Source of the DNA: a virus
IMG/VR virus record: IMGVR_UViG_3300021963_000836
Coordinates: 1-20,072 of that record
Strand: one strand, 5' to 3'
Length of the DNA stretch: 20,072 nt
The notes below the pieces were generated by a model. That model was given only the letters and a program-made list of their open reading frames with translations, ran no database searches and was not told where the DNA came from. The position numbers and the translations under genes were made by a program. Below are positions 179-19,767 of this stretch, piece after piece. Each line of letters opens with the position of its first letter. Position 1 is the first letter of the stretch.

Positions 179-206
179 ATTTATCGTTGCTATCTCTAAA
201 TATCAC

Positions 207-230
207 ACGCGCGCGTTAACTAATTGTTAA
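207..230. promoter_or_regulatory. GC palindrome and inverted repeat just before terS start
   Basis: acgcgcgcgt at 207-216 is a perfect palindrome of alternating C and G in a region that is otherwise almost all A and T. Immediately after it lies an inverted repeat ttaac (216-220) / gttaa (226-230), ending four bases before the ATG at 235. Possible roles are an operator for the first late gene, a terminase nicking or binding site, or a nucleoid-protein boundary. The function is not established. Confidence 0.4.
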
Positions 231-234
231 AAAA

Positions 235-714
235 ATGCATGATTTAAAAGAAATAAAAAAAAAGGAATTATCAAAAGCTGATTCATTCGAATTGCTCGAA
301 AAAAATATTGATTATGTATTAAATAAGATAAGCAGTAATATTAGTTATGCTTCTATAGCTAAAGAATTCAACATTAATGTAGCTAATCTTTGCTTCTTTC
401 TCAATCAAGATCAAATAAAAGAAAAAAAAGAATTAGCACTTCAACTAGCTTCATACATACAAATTGAAGAAGCTAAGCAACATCTTGAATCGATAGACGC
501 TGATGATACGAACGCAAGTGTTCGCAAGAAATGCGAATTATCACAATTTGCAACATATTTGGCAAAAGTTAAGAATAGAAAAGAATTTGATTTAAATTAT
601 AAGTCTCAAGAATCACTGACAAACAATAATAATATTATTACTCCGCAACTTACGCTTAAAGTTGTTAATAATTCCGAAAATCAATTAAAAATCACAAATG
701 AAGAAAGTAACTAA
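235..714 (+). CDS. terS: Probable terminase small subunit
   Basis: This 159-residue, mainly helical, charged protein lies directly upstream of the large terminase. That position and size fit a small terminase subunit, which recognises viral DNA and starts packaging into the prohead. Residues 38-57 (YASIAKEFNINVANLCFFLN) look like a helix-turn-helix, in the place where small terminases carry their DNA-binding domain. Residues 95-120, basic and helical, resemble the oligomerisation segment of this family. The tail from about 125 on is Asn-rich and probably disordered. The ATG at 235 is the first in frame and has no Shine-Dalgarno sequence. The 3' end overlaps the next small ORF by 17 bases. The call rests on context and the helix-turn-helix, not on a diagnostic motif. 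Confidence 0.65.
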   Translation: MHDLKEIKKKELSKADSFELLEKNIDYVLNKISSNISYASIAKEFNINVANLCFFLNQDQIKEKKELALQLASYIQIEEAKQHLESIDADDTNASVRKKCELSQFATYLAKVKNRKEFDLNYKSQESLTNNNNIITPQLTLKVVNNSENQLKITNEESN

Positions 715-856
715 AATATCATTATTCTTATTAATTCTACTAATTTCTAATAATAGCTTCGCAACGTGTCGCTGTGTCTGTATCAACCGCCAATCAATGC
801 AAATGTGTGATTTAGCTTACGACTTCCCCGCAAATTGCACGCTTAATAGATGCTAA
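698..856 (+). CDS. Small secreted cysteine-rich peptide (52 aa)
   Basis: A complete 52-codon ORF fills the otherwise empty gap between the two terminase genes. It starts with ATG at 698 inside the terS 3' end and stops at TAA 854-856 inside the first codons of terL, so it is coupled to both. The N-terminus is a textbook signal peptide: MKK, a hydrophobic core of Leu/Ile at about residues 8-16, then SNNSFA as a likely cleavage site after residue 22. The predicted mature peptide is only about 30 residues and holds six cysteines (24, 26, 28, 37, 47, 52), beginning TCRCVC. An even number of cysteines in an exported peptide suggests disulfide bonds in the periplasm. From memory, short signal-peptide proteins with a C-R-C-V core occur in other phage late regions, but I know of no proven function. 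Confidence 0.72.
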   Translation: MKKVTKISLFLLILLISNNSFATCRCVCINRQSMQMCDLAYDFPANCTLNRC

Positions 857-2322
857 ATGTTGTAAATTTCGAACTGCAAGAAAAACAATCTATTTGTTGG
901 ACTTCGCCAGCAACTGAAATTCTTTATGGCGGTAGTGCTGGCGGGGGTAAGTCTCACGCCATGCGAGTAATTGCAATAATGCTTGCTTTTAGTGTTCCAA
1001 ATATTCAAATTTATTTATTTCGTCGAGTGTTCGCTGACCTGCTCAAAAATCATGTTGAAGGCTCTTCGGGGTTTCGTGCGTTGCTTGCTCCGTGGATTAA
1101 AGAAAAATTTGTAAAAATCACTGAAGAGGAAATAACGTTCCAAAATGGTGCAAAAATTTATTTGTGCCATTGCCAGCATGAGAAGGACGTGTACAAATAT
1201 CAAGGGGCTGAAATGCAAGTGATTTTGATTGATGAGTTGACGCATTTTAGCGAGAAAATTTACAAATTCTTAAGAGGTAGAGCAAGGCTTGGCGGTGTTG
1301 AAGTGCCAGAGCATTTAAAACATAAACTCCCGCTTATCTTGTGCGGTAGCAACCCCGGGGGAATTGGTCATGAATTTGTTAAACAAATGTTTATTGATAA
1401 CTGCAAACCCTTTGAGCTTAGAAAAATGAGCGTTGAAGATGGTGGAATGATTAGACAATATATCCCCGCAAGACTTAGTGATAATGAAGTATTGATGCGT
1501 AATGATCCGAATTATGCTGACAAACTGATGGGCTTAGGCGGTGCATTAGCAAAAGCAATGTTAGACGGAGATTGGGACGCTATTGAAGGGGCTTATTTTG
1601 ACAATTTTGACGCAAAAAAACATGTTATTGATTATGTCAATGTTCCGCATACTTGGCACAAGATAAGAGCTTTTGACTGGGGCTATTCTCGCCCATTTTG
1701 TGTGCTTTGGGGTGCAGTGTCGGACGGCTCGCTTGTTGATTGCGGAGGCATTAAGCGTAGTTTTGCAAGAGGCGCAATCATTGTTTATCGTGAATTCTAT
1801 GGTTGCACTGGCAAAGCAAACGAAGGCTTAAAAATGAATGTTCCCGAAATCGCTAAGACAATTAAAGAATTGCAGATGGGGGAAAAAATGGATGCAATGG
1901 TTGCTGACCCTGCAATATTTGATGTTTCAAGCGGGGAATCAATCGCTAATCAATTTGAGAAGCAAGGAATTGGCTGGCTTCCTGCTGATAATAAACGGGT
2001 TAATGGTTGGCAACAAATAAGAGCAAGGTTTACTGGTAATGAAGATGAGCAACCACTTCTTTACATAACTTCTAATTGCAAGAATCTACTACGCACGATT
2101 CCACTTATGCAATATGATAATTCTAAGCCTGAGGATTTAAACACAGATTTAGAAGATCATGCAGTTGATACTTTACGCTATTTGTGCATGAGTCGCCCGA
2201 TTATTCCAGCTGAAATTAAAAAACCAATGACAATGCAGGAATCAATAAATAAACAATTTGAAGTGCAAAGGTTAATTGATGAAATAAAAAAACAAAATGA
2301 ACTATTGACAAAAAGAAAGTAA
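850..2322 (+). CDS. terL: Terminase large subunit (DNA-packaging ATPase/nuclease)
   Basis: The 490-residue protein has the two-domain plan of a large terminase, the motor that pumps DNA into the prohead through the portal and cuts it. In the ATPase domain, Walker A is GGSAGGGKS (27-35, Lys34), Walker B with catalytic Glu is VILIDE (124-129), and the coupling motif is GSNPGG (166-171). The RNase H-like nuclease domain starts near AFDWGYSRP (274-282). Candidate metal-binding acidic residues are Asp276, Asp353 (VADPA) and Asp436/Asp440 (EDHAVD). The 5' end carries FELQEKQ, resembling the adenine-binding segment before Walker A. The ATG at 850 overlaps the preceding small ORF by 7 bases, which suggests translational coupling. 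The gene looks full length and intact. Confidence 0.96.
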   Translation: MLNVVNFELQEKQSICWTSPATEILYGGSAGGGKSHAMRVIAIMLAFSVPNIQIYLFRRVFADLLKNHVEGSSGFRALLAPWIKEKFVKITEEEITFQNGAKIYLCHCQHEKDVYKYQGAEMQVILIDELTHFSEKIYKFLRGRARLGGVEVPEHLKHKLPLILCGSNPGGIGHEFVKQMFIDNCKPFELRKMSVEDGGMIRQYIPARLSDNEVLMRNDPNYADKLMGLGGALAKAMLDGDWDAIEGAYFDNFDAKKHVIDYVNVPHTWHKIRAFDWGYSRPFCVLWGAVSDGSLVDCGGIKRSFARGAIIVYREFYGCTGKANEGLKMNVPEIAKTIKELQMGEKMDAMVADPAIFDVSSGESIANQFEKQGIGWLPADNKRVNGWQQIRARFTGNEDEQPLLYITSNCKNLLRTIPLMQYDNSKPEDLNTDLEDHAVDTLRYLCMSRPIIPAEIKKPMTMQESINKQFEVQRLIDEIKKQNELLTKRK

Positions 2323-2341
2323 TAAATAATATAAAAAAAAT

Positions 2342-4600
2342 ATGAGCATGAACCAAATTGAAACACAAGACGAATTATCATCATTCACAGGCGAGCAAAG
2401 GCTTGTTGATATTTGGCGTCGTGAAATTGACAACGCTAAAAAATATCACGAAAAATCAAAAGAAATCGCTAAAAAATATCAGGAAATTTACGAATCCCAA
2501 GCGGAAGAAGCTGAATTACAATCAAATTTCCCAATATTTTGGAGCAATACACAAGTTTTAAGACCACTTCTATTTTCTAAGCTTCCCAAGGCAAATATTA
2601 CGCAATCTTTTTTTAATGACGATGAGATTTCAAGAATAGCTAGTGAATTAGTTGAAAGATTAATTACTTATTTGCTAAAAGAATCTGATGCAGAAAATCA
2701 AATTGAGAAAATAAGAGATGCTTATTTGGTTCAAGGCATTGGAATACCAAGAATTGTATTTATACCGCCTGAACCAATTGAAATTAAAACTAAAAAGAAA
2801 AAGAAAAAACAAAAGCCAGAAATGGAAGATGAAGGCGAATCTGAAAATGAAGATGAATCATCATCTAAGGATTATTCCGAAGATATGGCGGAAGGTGAAA
2901 CTGAAGACACAGAAGAAGAAACAACTTACGAAACTGATGAATCTAAAAAATCATTCACGATTGAATTTGTTGATTACCAAGATTTTCTTAAAAGCACAGA
3001 AAAAGAATGGAATAGGTTAAGATGGGTTGCGTTTAGAAAATATTATTCACGCAAAGAATTAATTGATTATTTTGGCAAGAAAGGTGAAAAAGTGCCAATG
3101 ACTAACAATAAATTTGAATATCTTGGTGAACAAGAAGAAGATCTATATAAACTATGCGAAGTTTGGGAAATTTGGGATAAGGAAAACAAAATGTGTCATT
3201 TTATCACTTTTGCTGGCGATGGTTATGTTTTAGATAGCCAAGAAGATGGTTATAATCTAAAAAATTTCTTCCCAATACCGATGCCGATGGGGCTTAATGA
3301 GTCTAAAAAGCTATTACCCGCCCCTTTATTTTCGAAGTATAAAAATTTATCCGAAGATTTAACTGAAATTCATGACAGAATTCAAAGCTTAATCAAGCAA
3401 GCTAAATTTACAGGTGCTTATACTTCATTTGCCGAGGAATCAGACATTCAAAATATAATGAATGGTAATGATGGCGAATTTAAACCACTTAAAACTACTG
3501 CAAATATTGATGATGCTAGAAAATTAGTTGTATTTAAACCCCTCAATGAAATTGTTAATACAATTACTGTTTTAAGAACTGAAAAGATGGCACTTAAGCA
3601 AGATATTCAGGAAATAACTGGTTTAAGTGATATCGTCCGCGGTTATAGTGTAGCAAGTGAAACCGCAACGGCTCAACAATTAAAAGGTAATTTTGCTATT
3701 AGCAGAATCCAACCATTACAAAAAGAGGTTGAGTTCACTATAAGAGACACAATAAGACTCTTGGCGGAGTTGGCAGTTGAAAAAATGTCTATTGATGAGA
3801 TAATTAAAATAACTGGCTTAAAAGTTGTTGATGTTGAATTAATAATGAAAAATGCTCGTCAATCTATTGAAATGGAAAAAAGGCACGCAATTTCATTATT
3901 AAAGCCCGAAGACCCCAATAATCAAGAAAAAATTATGATGTTGGAGCAACAAGCACAACTTGGCTTGCAAAAAACATTAAAAGATTTACAAGATCAGCTA
4001 AAAGGCTTTGTGATTCAATATAAAGACAAATATAAATTAGAAAAAACAATTAAAAACGATAAACTTCGTTGTATTTCTATTGATATTGAGACTGATAGCA
4101 CGGTAAAGATAGACCAAAACCAAGAAAAAATGGATAGAATGGAATATATTCGCACTATTGGCCAAACAATTCAATCTATGGTCCCAGCCGTTCAAACTAA
4201 TGTTATTTCTAAAGATGCACTCAATGAATTTGTAATTTTTGCCTCGAAACCATTTAAAGTTGGTAGAAACCTTGAAAATTATCTTAAAAATGAAGAGCCA
4301 ATTGAGGAAAAACCAGACCCGCAAGCAATGATAGCACAAGCTGAACTTGAAATGAAAAAACAAGAATTACAATTGAAAGCACAAGAAATAACTGGTAAAT
4401 TAGATTTAGAACAACAAAAAGTAAATGTTGATAAGGCTAAGGTTCTAAATGACCAGAATAAATTTGAGCAAAAACTAGAATTTGAAGATGCTAATAAACA
4501 AGCTGATAGAGAAAGCAAAAGACTTGATATGAAAGTTAAAGCTGGAACGGAACTTGTAAATGAGCAAATTCGTAATGCTAACCAACCAACGCAAATATAA
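2342..4600 (+). CDS. Portal protein
   Basis: This 752-residue protein directly after terL fits the large portal of podovirus-like phages, a dodecameric ring at one capsid vertex through which DNA enters and leaves. Residues 63-86 ([18 protein letters not shown], then LPKANI) match a conserved N-terminal block I associate with this portal family. Residues 150-205 form an unusual insert: a run of lysines followed by about 45 residues dominated by Glu, Asp and Ser. The end, from about 670, is Gln/Lys/Glu-rich and helical, as in portals with a C-terminal barrel. There is no Shine-Dalgarno sequence. A second ATG at 2348 (third codon) is an alternative start. The 19-base gap after terL contains A-rich sequence only. 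Confidence 0.88.
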
Positions 4601-4601
4601 T

Positions 4602-4736
4602 ATGCCATTAAAAAAAGGTTCATCAAATAAAGTTATTTCTGCTAACATTAAAAAAGAAATGAAAGCTGGCAAGCCACAAAGACAGGCAATCGCAATTGCC
4701 TTGTCTAATGCTGGTAAATCTAAAAAGAAAAAATAA
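4602..4736 (+). CDS. DUF6496-like small basic protein (44 aa)
   Basis: A 44-codon ORF starts one base after the portal stop and ends two bases before the next gene. It begins [10 protein letters not shown] and contains [16 protein letters not shown] (23-38) followed by a lysine-rich tail. The QAIAIALS-x-AG pattern is the signature I know from DUF6496 and related short phage proteins, which often lie near structural genes. Its function is unknown. About a third of the residues are lysine or arginine, so nucleic acid binding is possible but unproven. The start at 4602 is the only ATG giving this conserved N-terminus. Confidence 0.78.
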
Positions 4737-18153: not shown

Positions 18154-18373
18154 TCTTAAAATTGTTGGCTCAATAATATTATTTATACTAGCCTTATTAT
18201 ATGAAATTTTAGTATTGACAATAATTTTTAAGTTTTCTATGGTGCATGATGAAAAAATGGGAGAAGAAGTTGTGCGCCTAGTAGCAGGATTTATTCCTTT
18301 CGTTGCGGGCGTGCAACTTTCTATTTTAGGTGCAAATATTATTGATATAAAAGGATTATTTAATAAAAAATGA
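18143..18373 (+). CDS. Holin candidate, two membrane helices (76 aa)
   Basis: The 76-residue protein has two hydrophobic segments, about 8-30 (VGSIILFILALLYEILVLTI) and 46-66 (LVAGFIPFVAGVQLSILGAN), separated by a charged loop (VHDEKMGEE) and ending in a basic tail (GLFNKK). Size, topology and position immediately before a spanin pair fit a class II holin, which makes holes in the inner membrane to release endolysin. Holins are too diverse to assign by motif, and each of the two preceding membrane proteins is a rival candidate. The start overlaps the upstream stop; the stop overlaps the next start as ATGA. Confidence 0.58.
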   Translation: MKNNLKIVGSIILFILALLYEILVLTIIFKFSMVHDEKMGEEVVRLVAGFIPFVAGVQLSILGANIIDIKGLFNKK

Positions 18374-18648
18374 TAAATTTGATTTACAAACTAAAATACT
18401 TCTTTAATCAATATATTTTAATTGCTCTTATTACTTTATTAATTATGGCTTGCCTTCTGTTATATTGGAAAGGCAAAGAAGTTGAAAAACTTGTACAACA
18501 AATTGATGAATATAAAAAAATCGAGGAAGAAGTAAAAAATCAAAATTTAAATGTTAAACAAAATGTCGAAATTATTAAAAAAAGGATTGAGTCTAGCACT
18601 AATTATGATGACGATAGGTTGCTCAAACAAATATTTGGCGACAAATAA
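18370..18648 (+). CDS. Spanin inner-membrane subunit (Rz-like)
   Basis: This 92-residue protein has a basic N-terminus, one membrane segment (15-33, YILIALITLLIMACLLLYW), and then a charged helix from 34 to 78 with coiled-coil heptads (EVEKLVQQIDEYKKIEEEVK). This is the layout of an i-spanin. Spanins disrupt the outer membrane at the last step of Gram-negative lysis by joining inner and outer membranes. The last third of the gene overlaps, in another frame, a lipoprotein-like ORF, the classic Rz/Rz1 arrangement. The gene is translationally coupled to the holin candidate by ATGA. Confidence 0.72.
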   Translation: MINLIYKLKYFFNQYILIALITLLIMACLLLYWKGKEVEKLVQQIDEYKKIEEEVKNQNLNVKQNVEIIKKRIESSTNYDDDRLLKQIFGDK

Positions 18649-18838
18649 TTATTGTGAGAATTTGCCAGATATAACTTGGAAACACGCTGAGTTAGTATAT
18701 GGTAATCAAAAATTCAAACCAATAAAATTAATTTTAATACAAATACAATCTATTAAAGAGTGCGGGTGTATCGAATCCTCTTTGCAAACACAATGTTTTG
18801 AAAGGTTTAAATCAGAAAAAAATGTGGATTATAGATAA
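18551..18838 (+). CDS. Spanin outer-membrane lipoprotein (Rz1-like)
   Basis: The 95-residue frame starts within the i-spanin gene in the +1 frame and continues 190 bases beyond it. Residues 5-24 (MSKLLKKGLSLALIMMTIGC) look like a lipoprotein signal: basic start, hydrophobic core and a lipobox-like TIGC, with Cys24 as the predicted lipidated residue. Position -3 is Thr instead of the usual Leu, so the lipobox is imperfect. ATG 18563 is an equally good or better start. The mature part holds four more cysteines (35, 71, 73, 82), unlike the short proline-rich Rz1 of lambda. The overlap with a typical i-spanin is the strongest argument for the call. Confidence 0.68.
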   Translation: MLNKMSKLLKKGLSLALIMMTIGCSNKYLATNNYCENLPDITWKHAELVYGNQKFKPIKLILIQIQSIKECGCIESSLQTQCFERFKSEKNVDYR

Positions 18839-19352
18839 AATCAGAAAAAAATCACAACCGCTAGAATTTAACTTGTACAGGTTTTATACTGAACAAGGAA
18901 ATGATGCCACAATTGGAAGGCTTTATCAAAAAATTGAACACTACGAAAAACCAATTTGTTATACACTAGAAAGACCAAAATATTTCAATGGTTTGACAAA
19001 TTATAGCGACAAACCAAACACCACCATAAACGAATCTTGTTGCATTCCAGCGGGTCGTTATAAATGCGAAATGACCTATTCACCACGTTTTAAAAAAGAT
19101 TTGTATTTAGTATTAAAAATTAAAAATAGAGAAGGCGTAAGACTACACGCTGGAAATTCTATCAATGATATTGAAGGCTGTATTATTTTTGGAACAAGAC
19201 TTGTAAAAAACTTTAATGGTTTTAAATATTGGCTCGCTGATAGTACAAAGGCTTTTAATAATTTTTACAACATAACTCAAAAAAAGCCGATAATTTTAAA
19301 CATAATCGACAATGACCAAGAGTATATTTTATCCAAAATTACAATTGAATAA
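18822..19352 (+). CDS. DUF5675 family protein, candidate wall-active enzyme
   Basis: The frame extends to a TTG at 18798, but ATG 18822 gives the more plausible 176-residue protein; it overlaps the o-spanin gene by 17 bases. The DUF5675 signature is clear: ICYTLERPK (45-53), SCCIPAGRYKCEMTYSPRFK (72-91) and GVRLHAGNSINDIEGCIIFG (105-124). The HAGN...GC arrangement (His109, Cys120) faintly recalls the His/Cys motif of L,D-transpeptidases, but the spacing differs. DUF5675 function is unestablished to my knowledge. It sits directly after the spanins in a cassette where no lysozyme, amidase or transglycosylase gene can be seen, so a peptidoglycan-related lysis role is a reasonable hypothesis. There is no signal peptide, so a holin would be needed for exit. 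Confidence 0.82.
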   Translation: MWIIDKIRKKSQPLEFNLYRFYTEQGNDATIGRLYQKIEHYEKPICYTLERPKYFNGLTNYSDKPNTTINESCCIPAGRYKCEMTYSPRFKKDLYLVLKIKNREGVRLHAGNSINDIEGCIIFGTRLVKNFNGFKYWLADSTKAFNNFYNITQKKPIILNIIDNDQEYILSKITIE

Positions 19353-19353
19353 T

Positions 19354-19767
19354 ATGATTTTATTTTTTATTTTCTTACTATTAGTATCTCCCGCCAAAGC
19401 TGAAAATTATTTTATTGAAAAAGTAATTAGAGTTACTGATGGCGACACTTTTGTTATCGATACAAGCGAAAAATCAAATATCCTTAGAGAGTTAGGATTA
19501 AGTGTAAGAATCTTAGGTATAGATACGCCAGAAAAAAAGGGTAAATGTAAAAAAGAAAAAGATTTAGCTTTAAAAGCAACTGAATTAACAAAAAAACTTA
19601 TTGAAAATAAAATTATAAAAATAACCGATATTAAGTGGGATAAATACGGCGGTCGTATAGACGCTAAAGTATTTGTCAATGATTTAAATGTTGGTGATGA
19701 ATTAATTAAAAAAAATTTAGCAGTCCTTTATTTTGGCGACAAAAAAAATAAAAATTGGTGCAAATAG
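19354..19767 (+). CDS. Exported staphylococcal-nuclease-like (SNase) protein
   Basis: ATG 19354, one base after the previous stop, gives 137 residues starting with a signal peptide (MILFFIFLLLVSPAKA; likely cleavage after residue 16). An upstream in-frame ATG at 19312 would hide it, so 19354 is preferred. The mature protein shows the thermonuclease pattern: VTDGDTF (27-33), VRILGIDTPE (51-60) and KYGGRIDAKVFV (97-108). By comparison with staphylococcal nuclease, Asp31, Arg52, Asp57, Thr58, Glu60 and Arg101 match the calcium-binding and catalytic residues, so an active secreted DNA/RNA-cleaving enzyme is predicted. Possible roles include breaking down extracellular DNA after lysis or blocking entry of competing phage DNA in the periplasm. 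It could equally be a captured host gene. Confidence 0.85.
   Translation: MILFFIFLLLVSPAKAENYFIEKVIRVTDGDTFVIDTSEKSNILRELGLSVRILGIDTPEKKGKCKKEKDLALKATELTKKLIENKIIKITDIKWDKYGGRIDAKVFVNDLNVGDELIKKNLAVLYFGDKKNKNWCK

What the first reader, a model, noticed from the sequence alone, without database searches (positions are those of the whole stretch)
698..856. Six-cysteine secreted mini-protein embedded between terS and terL
A complete 52-codon ORF with a textbook signal peptide and a roughly 30-residue mature part holding six cysteines exactly fills the gap between the terminase genes and overlaps both of them. Seen directly: length, signal peptide features, cysteine positions 24, 26, 28, 37, 47 and 52, and the overlaps. 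Inference: the product is exported and disulfide-bonded, perhaps acting on the host envelope or a periplasmic enzyme. From memory, short exported peptides with a C-R-C-V core occur in other phage late regions, but I know of no proven role. It is too short for most gene callers and may be missed widely.
Basis: partly seen in the sequence, partly recalled or inferred. Interest (0 to 1): 0.72.

Follow-up and report, generated by a model that had tools for sequence, protein, structure and literature searches.

The report
Secreted six-cysteine phage mini-protein gene
Between the two DNA-packaging genes of this uncultivated phage sits a real but optional 52-codon gene for a tiny exported protein with six conserved cysteines, a short form of an unnamed secreted protein family also found in bacterial chromosomes; its job is unknown, most likely in the host cell envelope.

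Summary
The ORF at 698-856 is as described: 52 codons, a signal-peptide-like start, a 30-residue mature part with cysteines 24, 26, 28, 37, 47 and 52, and overlaps of 17 nt with terS and 7 nt with terL. It is a real gene. About a dozen homologues lie between terS and terL in related uncultivated phages, four upstream of terS, one elsewhere. All six cysteines and the Ala before the predicted cleavage site are invariant in 17 sequences; substitutions concentrate at codon position 3 (dN/dS 0.06 against the nearest same-length homologue). The gene is optional: a 38-kb relative with 94% identical TerL lacks only this gene, and three relatives keep decayed copies. It matches no Pfam, PHROG, NCBIfam, PADLOC or PDB entry. 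It corresponds to the N-terminal module of ~95-residue exported eight-cysteine proteins found in one phage contig and in about 1-2% of sampled Pseudomonadota genomes; in two bacteria that gene sits among Adhesin_E-type genes. Export and disulfides are inferred. Best-supported role: an accessory envelope effector, for example superinfection exclusion or interference with a host surface factor; that specific role is weakly supported.

The parts
235..714 (+). putative small terminase subunit (terS), 159 aa, overlaps the mini-gene by 17 nt
   Evidence: ORF; position directly upstream of terL; same-size homologues in L002, L006, L009 etc.; no Pfam hit at 1e-3
698..856 (+). gene for the exported six-cysteine mini-protein, 52 aa precursor
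698..763 (+). predicted signal peptide, residues 1-22 (two Lys after Met, hydrophobic core about residues 8-17, SFA before the cut)
   Evidence: hydropathy peak 3.06 at residues 7-17; -1 Ala 17/17 and -3 Ala/Ser 17/17 in homologues. SignalP not available
764..853 (+). predicted mature peptide, 30 residues, 3474 Da, six cysteines (TCRCVCINRQSMQMCDLAYDFPANCTLNRC)
   Evidence: six Cys invariant in 17 sequences; predicted beta-hairpin, pLDDT 83, pTM 0.39
850..2322 (+). large terminase subunit (terL), 490 aa, start overlaps the mini-gene stop by 7 nt
   Evidence: Pfam Terminase_6N 4e-8, Terminase_3 7e-7; PHROG terminase large subunit 3e-38

Best explanation
A real, selectively maintained but dispensable phage accessory gene for a tiny exported protein. 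Shown by sequence comparison: coding constraint, invariant six-Cys pattern, conserved SPase-I-type signal region, repeated loss between close relatives, and correspondence to the N-terminal module of a longer exported eight-Cys family in Pseudomonadota chromosomes. Inferred: it is made with the packaging genes (overlapping reading frames), exported by Sec, cut after Ala22, and closed by three disulfides around a Cys-rich beta-hairpin. Inferred and least certain: in the periplasm or at the surface it acts as an envelope effector, copying or interfering with a host surface factor of the same family, most plausibly to exclude superinfecting phages or otherwise change the infected cell's surface. 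I put the gene and its export at about 0.9 and superinfection exclusion or surface alteration at about 0.3.
For: Gene reality: homologues in the same slot in L006, L008, L009, L010, L011, L012/L016, L018, L086 and L121-L123; upstream of terS in L034, L048, L094, L095. Constraint: window vs L009 has 22 of 40 differences at codon position 3, Fisher p = 6e-10, other frames full of stops. Export: conserved [AS]xA|X-C with no lipobox. Dispensable: L002 lacks only this gene; stubs in L013 and L014 and a frameshifted, truncated copy in L100; at least 5 gain/loss changes forced on the TerL tree. Host kin: L101, L102, L126-L133 with eight or more Cys in most; in L142 and L143 the long form sits among Adhesin_E-type genes (Pfam run on L142).
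Against: No transcript, translation or proteomic evidence. No obvious Shine-Dalgarno sequence in the window copy. A position among packaging genes is less usual for superinfection exclusion genes, which are often expressed early or from prophages (general knowledge). The bacterial homologues are uncharacterised, so the envelope role rests on predicted export and one kind of neighbourhood. The link between short and long forms rests on a ~30-residue module, mainly Cys spacing, though the profile search finds long forms readily.
Confidence: 0.5

Rival explanations
1. A lysis-related periplasmic factor: it tunes lysis (for example by binding or inhibiting an envelope protease or the endolysin) rather than excluding other phages.
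For: Predicted to be exported and encoded among structural genes; small Cys-rich exported proteins are often enzyme inhibitors (general knowledge).
Against: A spanin-like pair already sits at 18370-18648 / 18551-18838 (weak Rz-like hit), far from this gene; relatives with near-identical TerL do without the mini-gene.
Confidence: 0.15
2. A metal-binding (zinc, copper or iron) periplasmic peptide, the CxCxC cluster being a metal site rather than half of three disulfides.
For: Three closely spaced CxCxC cysteines; sub-threshold match of one homologue to Phage_zn_bind PF23895 (E 0.23) and phrog_2306 (E 0.27).
Against: Predicted export to the oxidising periplasm; even Cys number in the mature relatives inspected (6, 8, 10); the zinc-family score is far below cut-off (12 against 27 bits) and for one homologue only.
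Confidence: 0.12
3. A secreted toxin-like, bacteriocin-like or signalling peptide released to neighbouring cells.
For: Size and Cys content resemble secreted peptides; one long homologue gave a sub-threshold hit to a sactipeptide family (14.9 bits against a cut-off of 60).
Against: No maturation, immunity or dedicated export gene next to it in the phages seen; in bacteria the long form lies in unrelated neighbourhoods.
Confidence: 0.08
4. A passenger: a captured fragment of a host secreted gene with no benefit to the phage.
For: Short form of a host family; decayed copies exist.
Against: Strong purifying selection over many synonymous changes and invariant cysteines across divergent phages.
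Confidence: 0.04

Closest known systems
Unnamed exported eight-Cys protein family of Pseudomonadota chromosomes (for example L101 Sulfuricaulis MAG, L102 Gallionella MAG, L126, L130)
   Same: Signal peptide followed by A-x-C-x-C-x-C-[VIM]-[ND]-x(n)-C-x(n)-C-x(n)-C; long forms found by profile searches
   Different: Bacterial forms add a Pro-rich linker and a C-terminal hairpin with two more Cys (about 95 aa); the phage short form ends at or just after the sixth Cys
Phage_zn_bind (PF23895 / phrog_2306)
   Same: Small phage protein with Cys residues; sub-threshold hit of one homologue
   Different: Far below the family cut-off; no hit for the window protein itself
Small exported superinfection-exclusion proteins of phages (T5 Llp, N15 Cor; from memory)
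   Same: Small phage-encoded exported envelope proteins, dispensable accessory genes
   Different: No sequence relation found; T5 Llp is a lipoprotein, there is no lipobox here; no exclusion activity tested
Adhesin_E (PF16747)
   Same: Neighbour of the chromosomal long form in an AT-rich genome (L142), with similar neighbours in L143
   Different: Neighbour only; no homology to the mini-protein

Membership tests
Unnamed exported Cys-rich family of Pseudomonadota | six-Cys N-terminal module CxCxC...C...C...C after a signal peptide | tested here: met
   (17 sequences, six Cys invariant); joint alignment with the long forms
Unnamed exported Cys-rich family of Pseudomonadota | Pro-rich linker and C-terminal Cys-closed hairpin | tested here: not met
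   absent from the window protein and all phage short forms; present in phage contig L098. It is a short form of the family, not a full member
Phage_zn_bind PF23895 / phrog_2306 | profile score above the curated cut-off | tested here: not met
   no hit for the window protein; L006 homologue 12.0 bits against 27
Rz1-type outer spanin | lipobox and pairing or embedding with an inner-membrane spanin gene | tested here: not met
   residue before Cys24 is T/S/K/M/E/D/I in homologues and -3 is A/S, no lipobox; gene lies between terS and terL
Superinfection exclusion protein | blocks adsorption or DNA entry of related phages | not testable with these tools
   needs an isolate or heterologous expression
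Known anti-phage defence proteins (PADLOC) | profile match | tested here: not met
   no hit for four family members
Disulfide-rich miniproteins of known fold | sequence or fold match in PDB | tested here: not met
   no sequence hit for the short-form profile, no Foldseek hit for the short model; long-form model only hits at E of 4 or more
Disulfide-bonded exported peptide | oxidised cysteines outside the cytoplasm | not testable with these tools
   only indirect: signal peptide, invariant and even Cys count

The most novel reading that the evidence does not exclude
Phages have taken the N-terminal module of a host surface or periplasmic protein and use it as a miniature secreted decoy or dominant-negative that changes the infected cell's envelope: a hitherto unnamed class of phage-encoded exported six-Cys effectors carried as a mobile cargo gene at the packaging locus.
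Probability: 0.2. Interest if true: 0.72.

Novelty: new variant of a known kind. Interest (0 to 1): 0.45.

Why it matters
Small exported phage proteins are easily missed: this one has no entry in Pfam, PHROGs, NCBIfam or PADLOC and no match in the phage and plasmid record collections searched, yet it is under clear purifying selection. If it acts on the host envelope it offers a compact, testable model for how phages remodel the infected cell. Close relatives with and without the gene (window clade vs L002) make the question testable once a host is cultivated, and the bacterial long form gives a cultivable entry point.

Tried and rejected
Family searches of the window protein and homologues in Pfam, PHROGs, NCBIfam and PADLOC gave only sub-threshold hits. 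tblastn of family members against phage or plasmid records gave no convincing match; short Cys-rich queries are hard for tblastn, so this is weak evidence of absence. The first genome-contig scan used a pattern inside the signal peptide and failed; a mature-part alignment worked. PDB sequence and fold searches found nothing useful. Rfam: nothing in the window; promoter and terminator scans no better than shuffles. Literature searches found no paper describing this gene. Considered and rejected: outer spanin (no lipobox, a spanin-like pair lies elsewhere), chance ORF (constraint), RNA element (no Rfam hit, coding signature). L001, 100% identical in TerL, looked as if it lacked the gene, but its first 68 nt are a chimeric join and the end of the gene is present. 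The phage host was not identified.

Full report
Observation. The ORF at 698-856 is present as described: ATG at 698, TAA at 854-856, 52 codons, Cys at 24, 26, 28, 37, 47 and 52, a 17-nt overlap with the upstream ORF (235-714) and a 7-nt overlap with terL (850-2322). terL is confirmed by Pfam and PHROG profiles; the upstream ORF is terS by position and size only. Downstream genes match portal and major head protein PHROGs, so this is a tailed-phage structural region. The window's record is a 20-kb virus record.

Is it a gene? Searching IMG/VR with TerL gave 80 related loci. Reading the terS-terL junctions and searching with peptide alignments gave homologues in the same slot in L006, L008, L009, L010, L011, L012/L016, L018, L086 and L121-L123, and upstream of terS in L034, L048, L094 and L095. 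L097 has one away from, and on the opposite strand to, its terminase genes. In an alignment of 17 mature sequences the six Cys and the Ala before the cut are invariant while mean column identity is 47%. Nei-Gojobori counts in the window clade show many synonymous changes (pS 0.37-0.83) with fewer replacements; window vs L009 gives dN/dS 0.06 and Fisher p 6e-10. A few pairs are higher (L010-L012 0.91) and synonymous sites are near saturation, so single ratios are rough. A simpler count over 15 pairs of the mature part gives differences of 102:102:234 at codon positions 1, 2 and 3, and the other two frames hold several stops. Chance and non-coding readings are excluded.

Export. All 17 phage homologues have Ala at -1 and Ala or Ser at -3, behind a basic start and a hydrophobic core. 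The residue before the first Cys varies (T, S, K, M, E, D, I), which rules out a lipobox. This fits SPase I cleavage and a soluble peptide of 30 residues, 3474 Da. SignalP was not available, so this is a reasoned inference. Disulfides are inferred from export, invariance and an even Cys count in the mature relatives inspected (6 in short forms, 8 in most long forms, 10 in L128).

Optional and repeatedly lost. L002, 94% identical in TerL on a 38-kb contig, aligns to window 196-680 and 856-4629 and lacks only this gene; a whole-record profile search finds no copy elsewhere in it. L013 and L014 keep only a signal-peptide stub, and L100 has a frameshifted, truncated copy just upstream of terS. On a TerL tree the 'between' state needs 6 changes, at least 5 forced by well-supported branches. 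'Absent' there means absent from the sequenced stretch around terL; nine longer records were searched whole and had none.

Wider family. A phage contig (L098) and another IMG/VR contig of uncertain viral status (L090) carry forms of about 92-94 aa with the same N-terminal module, a Pro-rich linker and a C-terminal Cys-closed hairpin. Searches of bacterial genomes found long forms in MAGs named Sulfuricaulis and Gallionella, in 3 of 369 sampled genomes of the class of the first, 4 of 399 of the phylum and 8 of 399 of the order of the second, the starting genome included each time and some hits weak. Neighbourhoods differ, but in two AT-rich genomes (L142, L143) the long gene lies in a run of similar genes, three of which in L142 are Adhesin_E (PF16747) members. 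The family has no match in Pfam, PHROGs, NCBIfam or PADLOC above cut-off and none in the phage or plasmid record collections.

Structure. AlphaFold2 on the mature alignment gives a tiny model (31 residues, pLDDT 83, pTM 0.39) with one beta-hairpin; the long form shows two hairpins with low overall confidence. There is no useful PDB relative by sequence or fold.

Mechanism. Best reading: an accessory envelope effector, made alongside the packaging genes, exported, and acting at the host surface or in the periplasm, perhaps by copying or interfering with the host's own longer protein. The parts about coding, maintenance and export are well supported; the specific target (superinfection exclusion being the leading guess) is not. 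Rivals are listed with tests.

Verdict. Interest is moderate: a clean, testable example of an overlooked small exported phage protein family with no proven function.

Noticed in passing
window 18370-18648 and 18551-18838: Overlapping pair that looks like an inner-membrane spanin and a lipoprotein outer spanin (lipobox-like MTIGC; weak Rz-like PHROG hit at E 0.059).
   Followed up: no
window 18798-19352: DUF5675 protein (Pfam PF18925, E 5.5e-26), overlapping its neighbours.
   Followed up: no
window 19312-19767: Predicted staphylococcal-nuclease-like protein (PF00565, E 3e-11) with a hydrophobic, signal-like N-terminus.
   Followed up: no
L001 1-68: Contig start matches window 4607-4541 in reverse orientation: likely an assembly chimera in IMGVR_UViG_3300020043_004541.
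   Followed up: partly
L142 3504-5062, L143 3271-4900: The chromosomal long-form gene lies among Adhesin_E-type genes in two AT-rich genomes of the same order as the Gallionella MAG.
   Followed up: partly
L107, L135, L136: Distant chromosomal relatives in which the CxCxC core is replaced by a C-R-x-x-Q-V-C-D-D-x-G-x-N-C type start; a possible sister family.
   Followed up: no
L105: Chromosomal long form that keeps the rest of the protein but lacks the CxCxC start in its open frame, perhaps a degraded gene.
   Followed up: no
L002-L005, L007 upstream of terL: At least two clearly different terS types occur next to near-identical terL genes, so the terS side of the junction also recombines.
   Followed up: no
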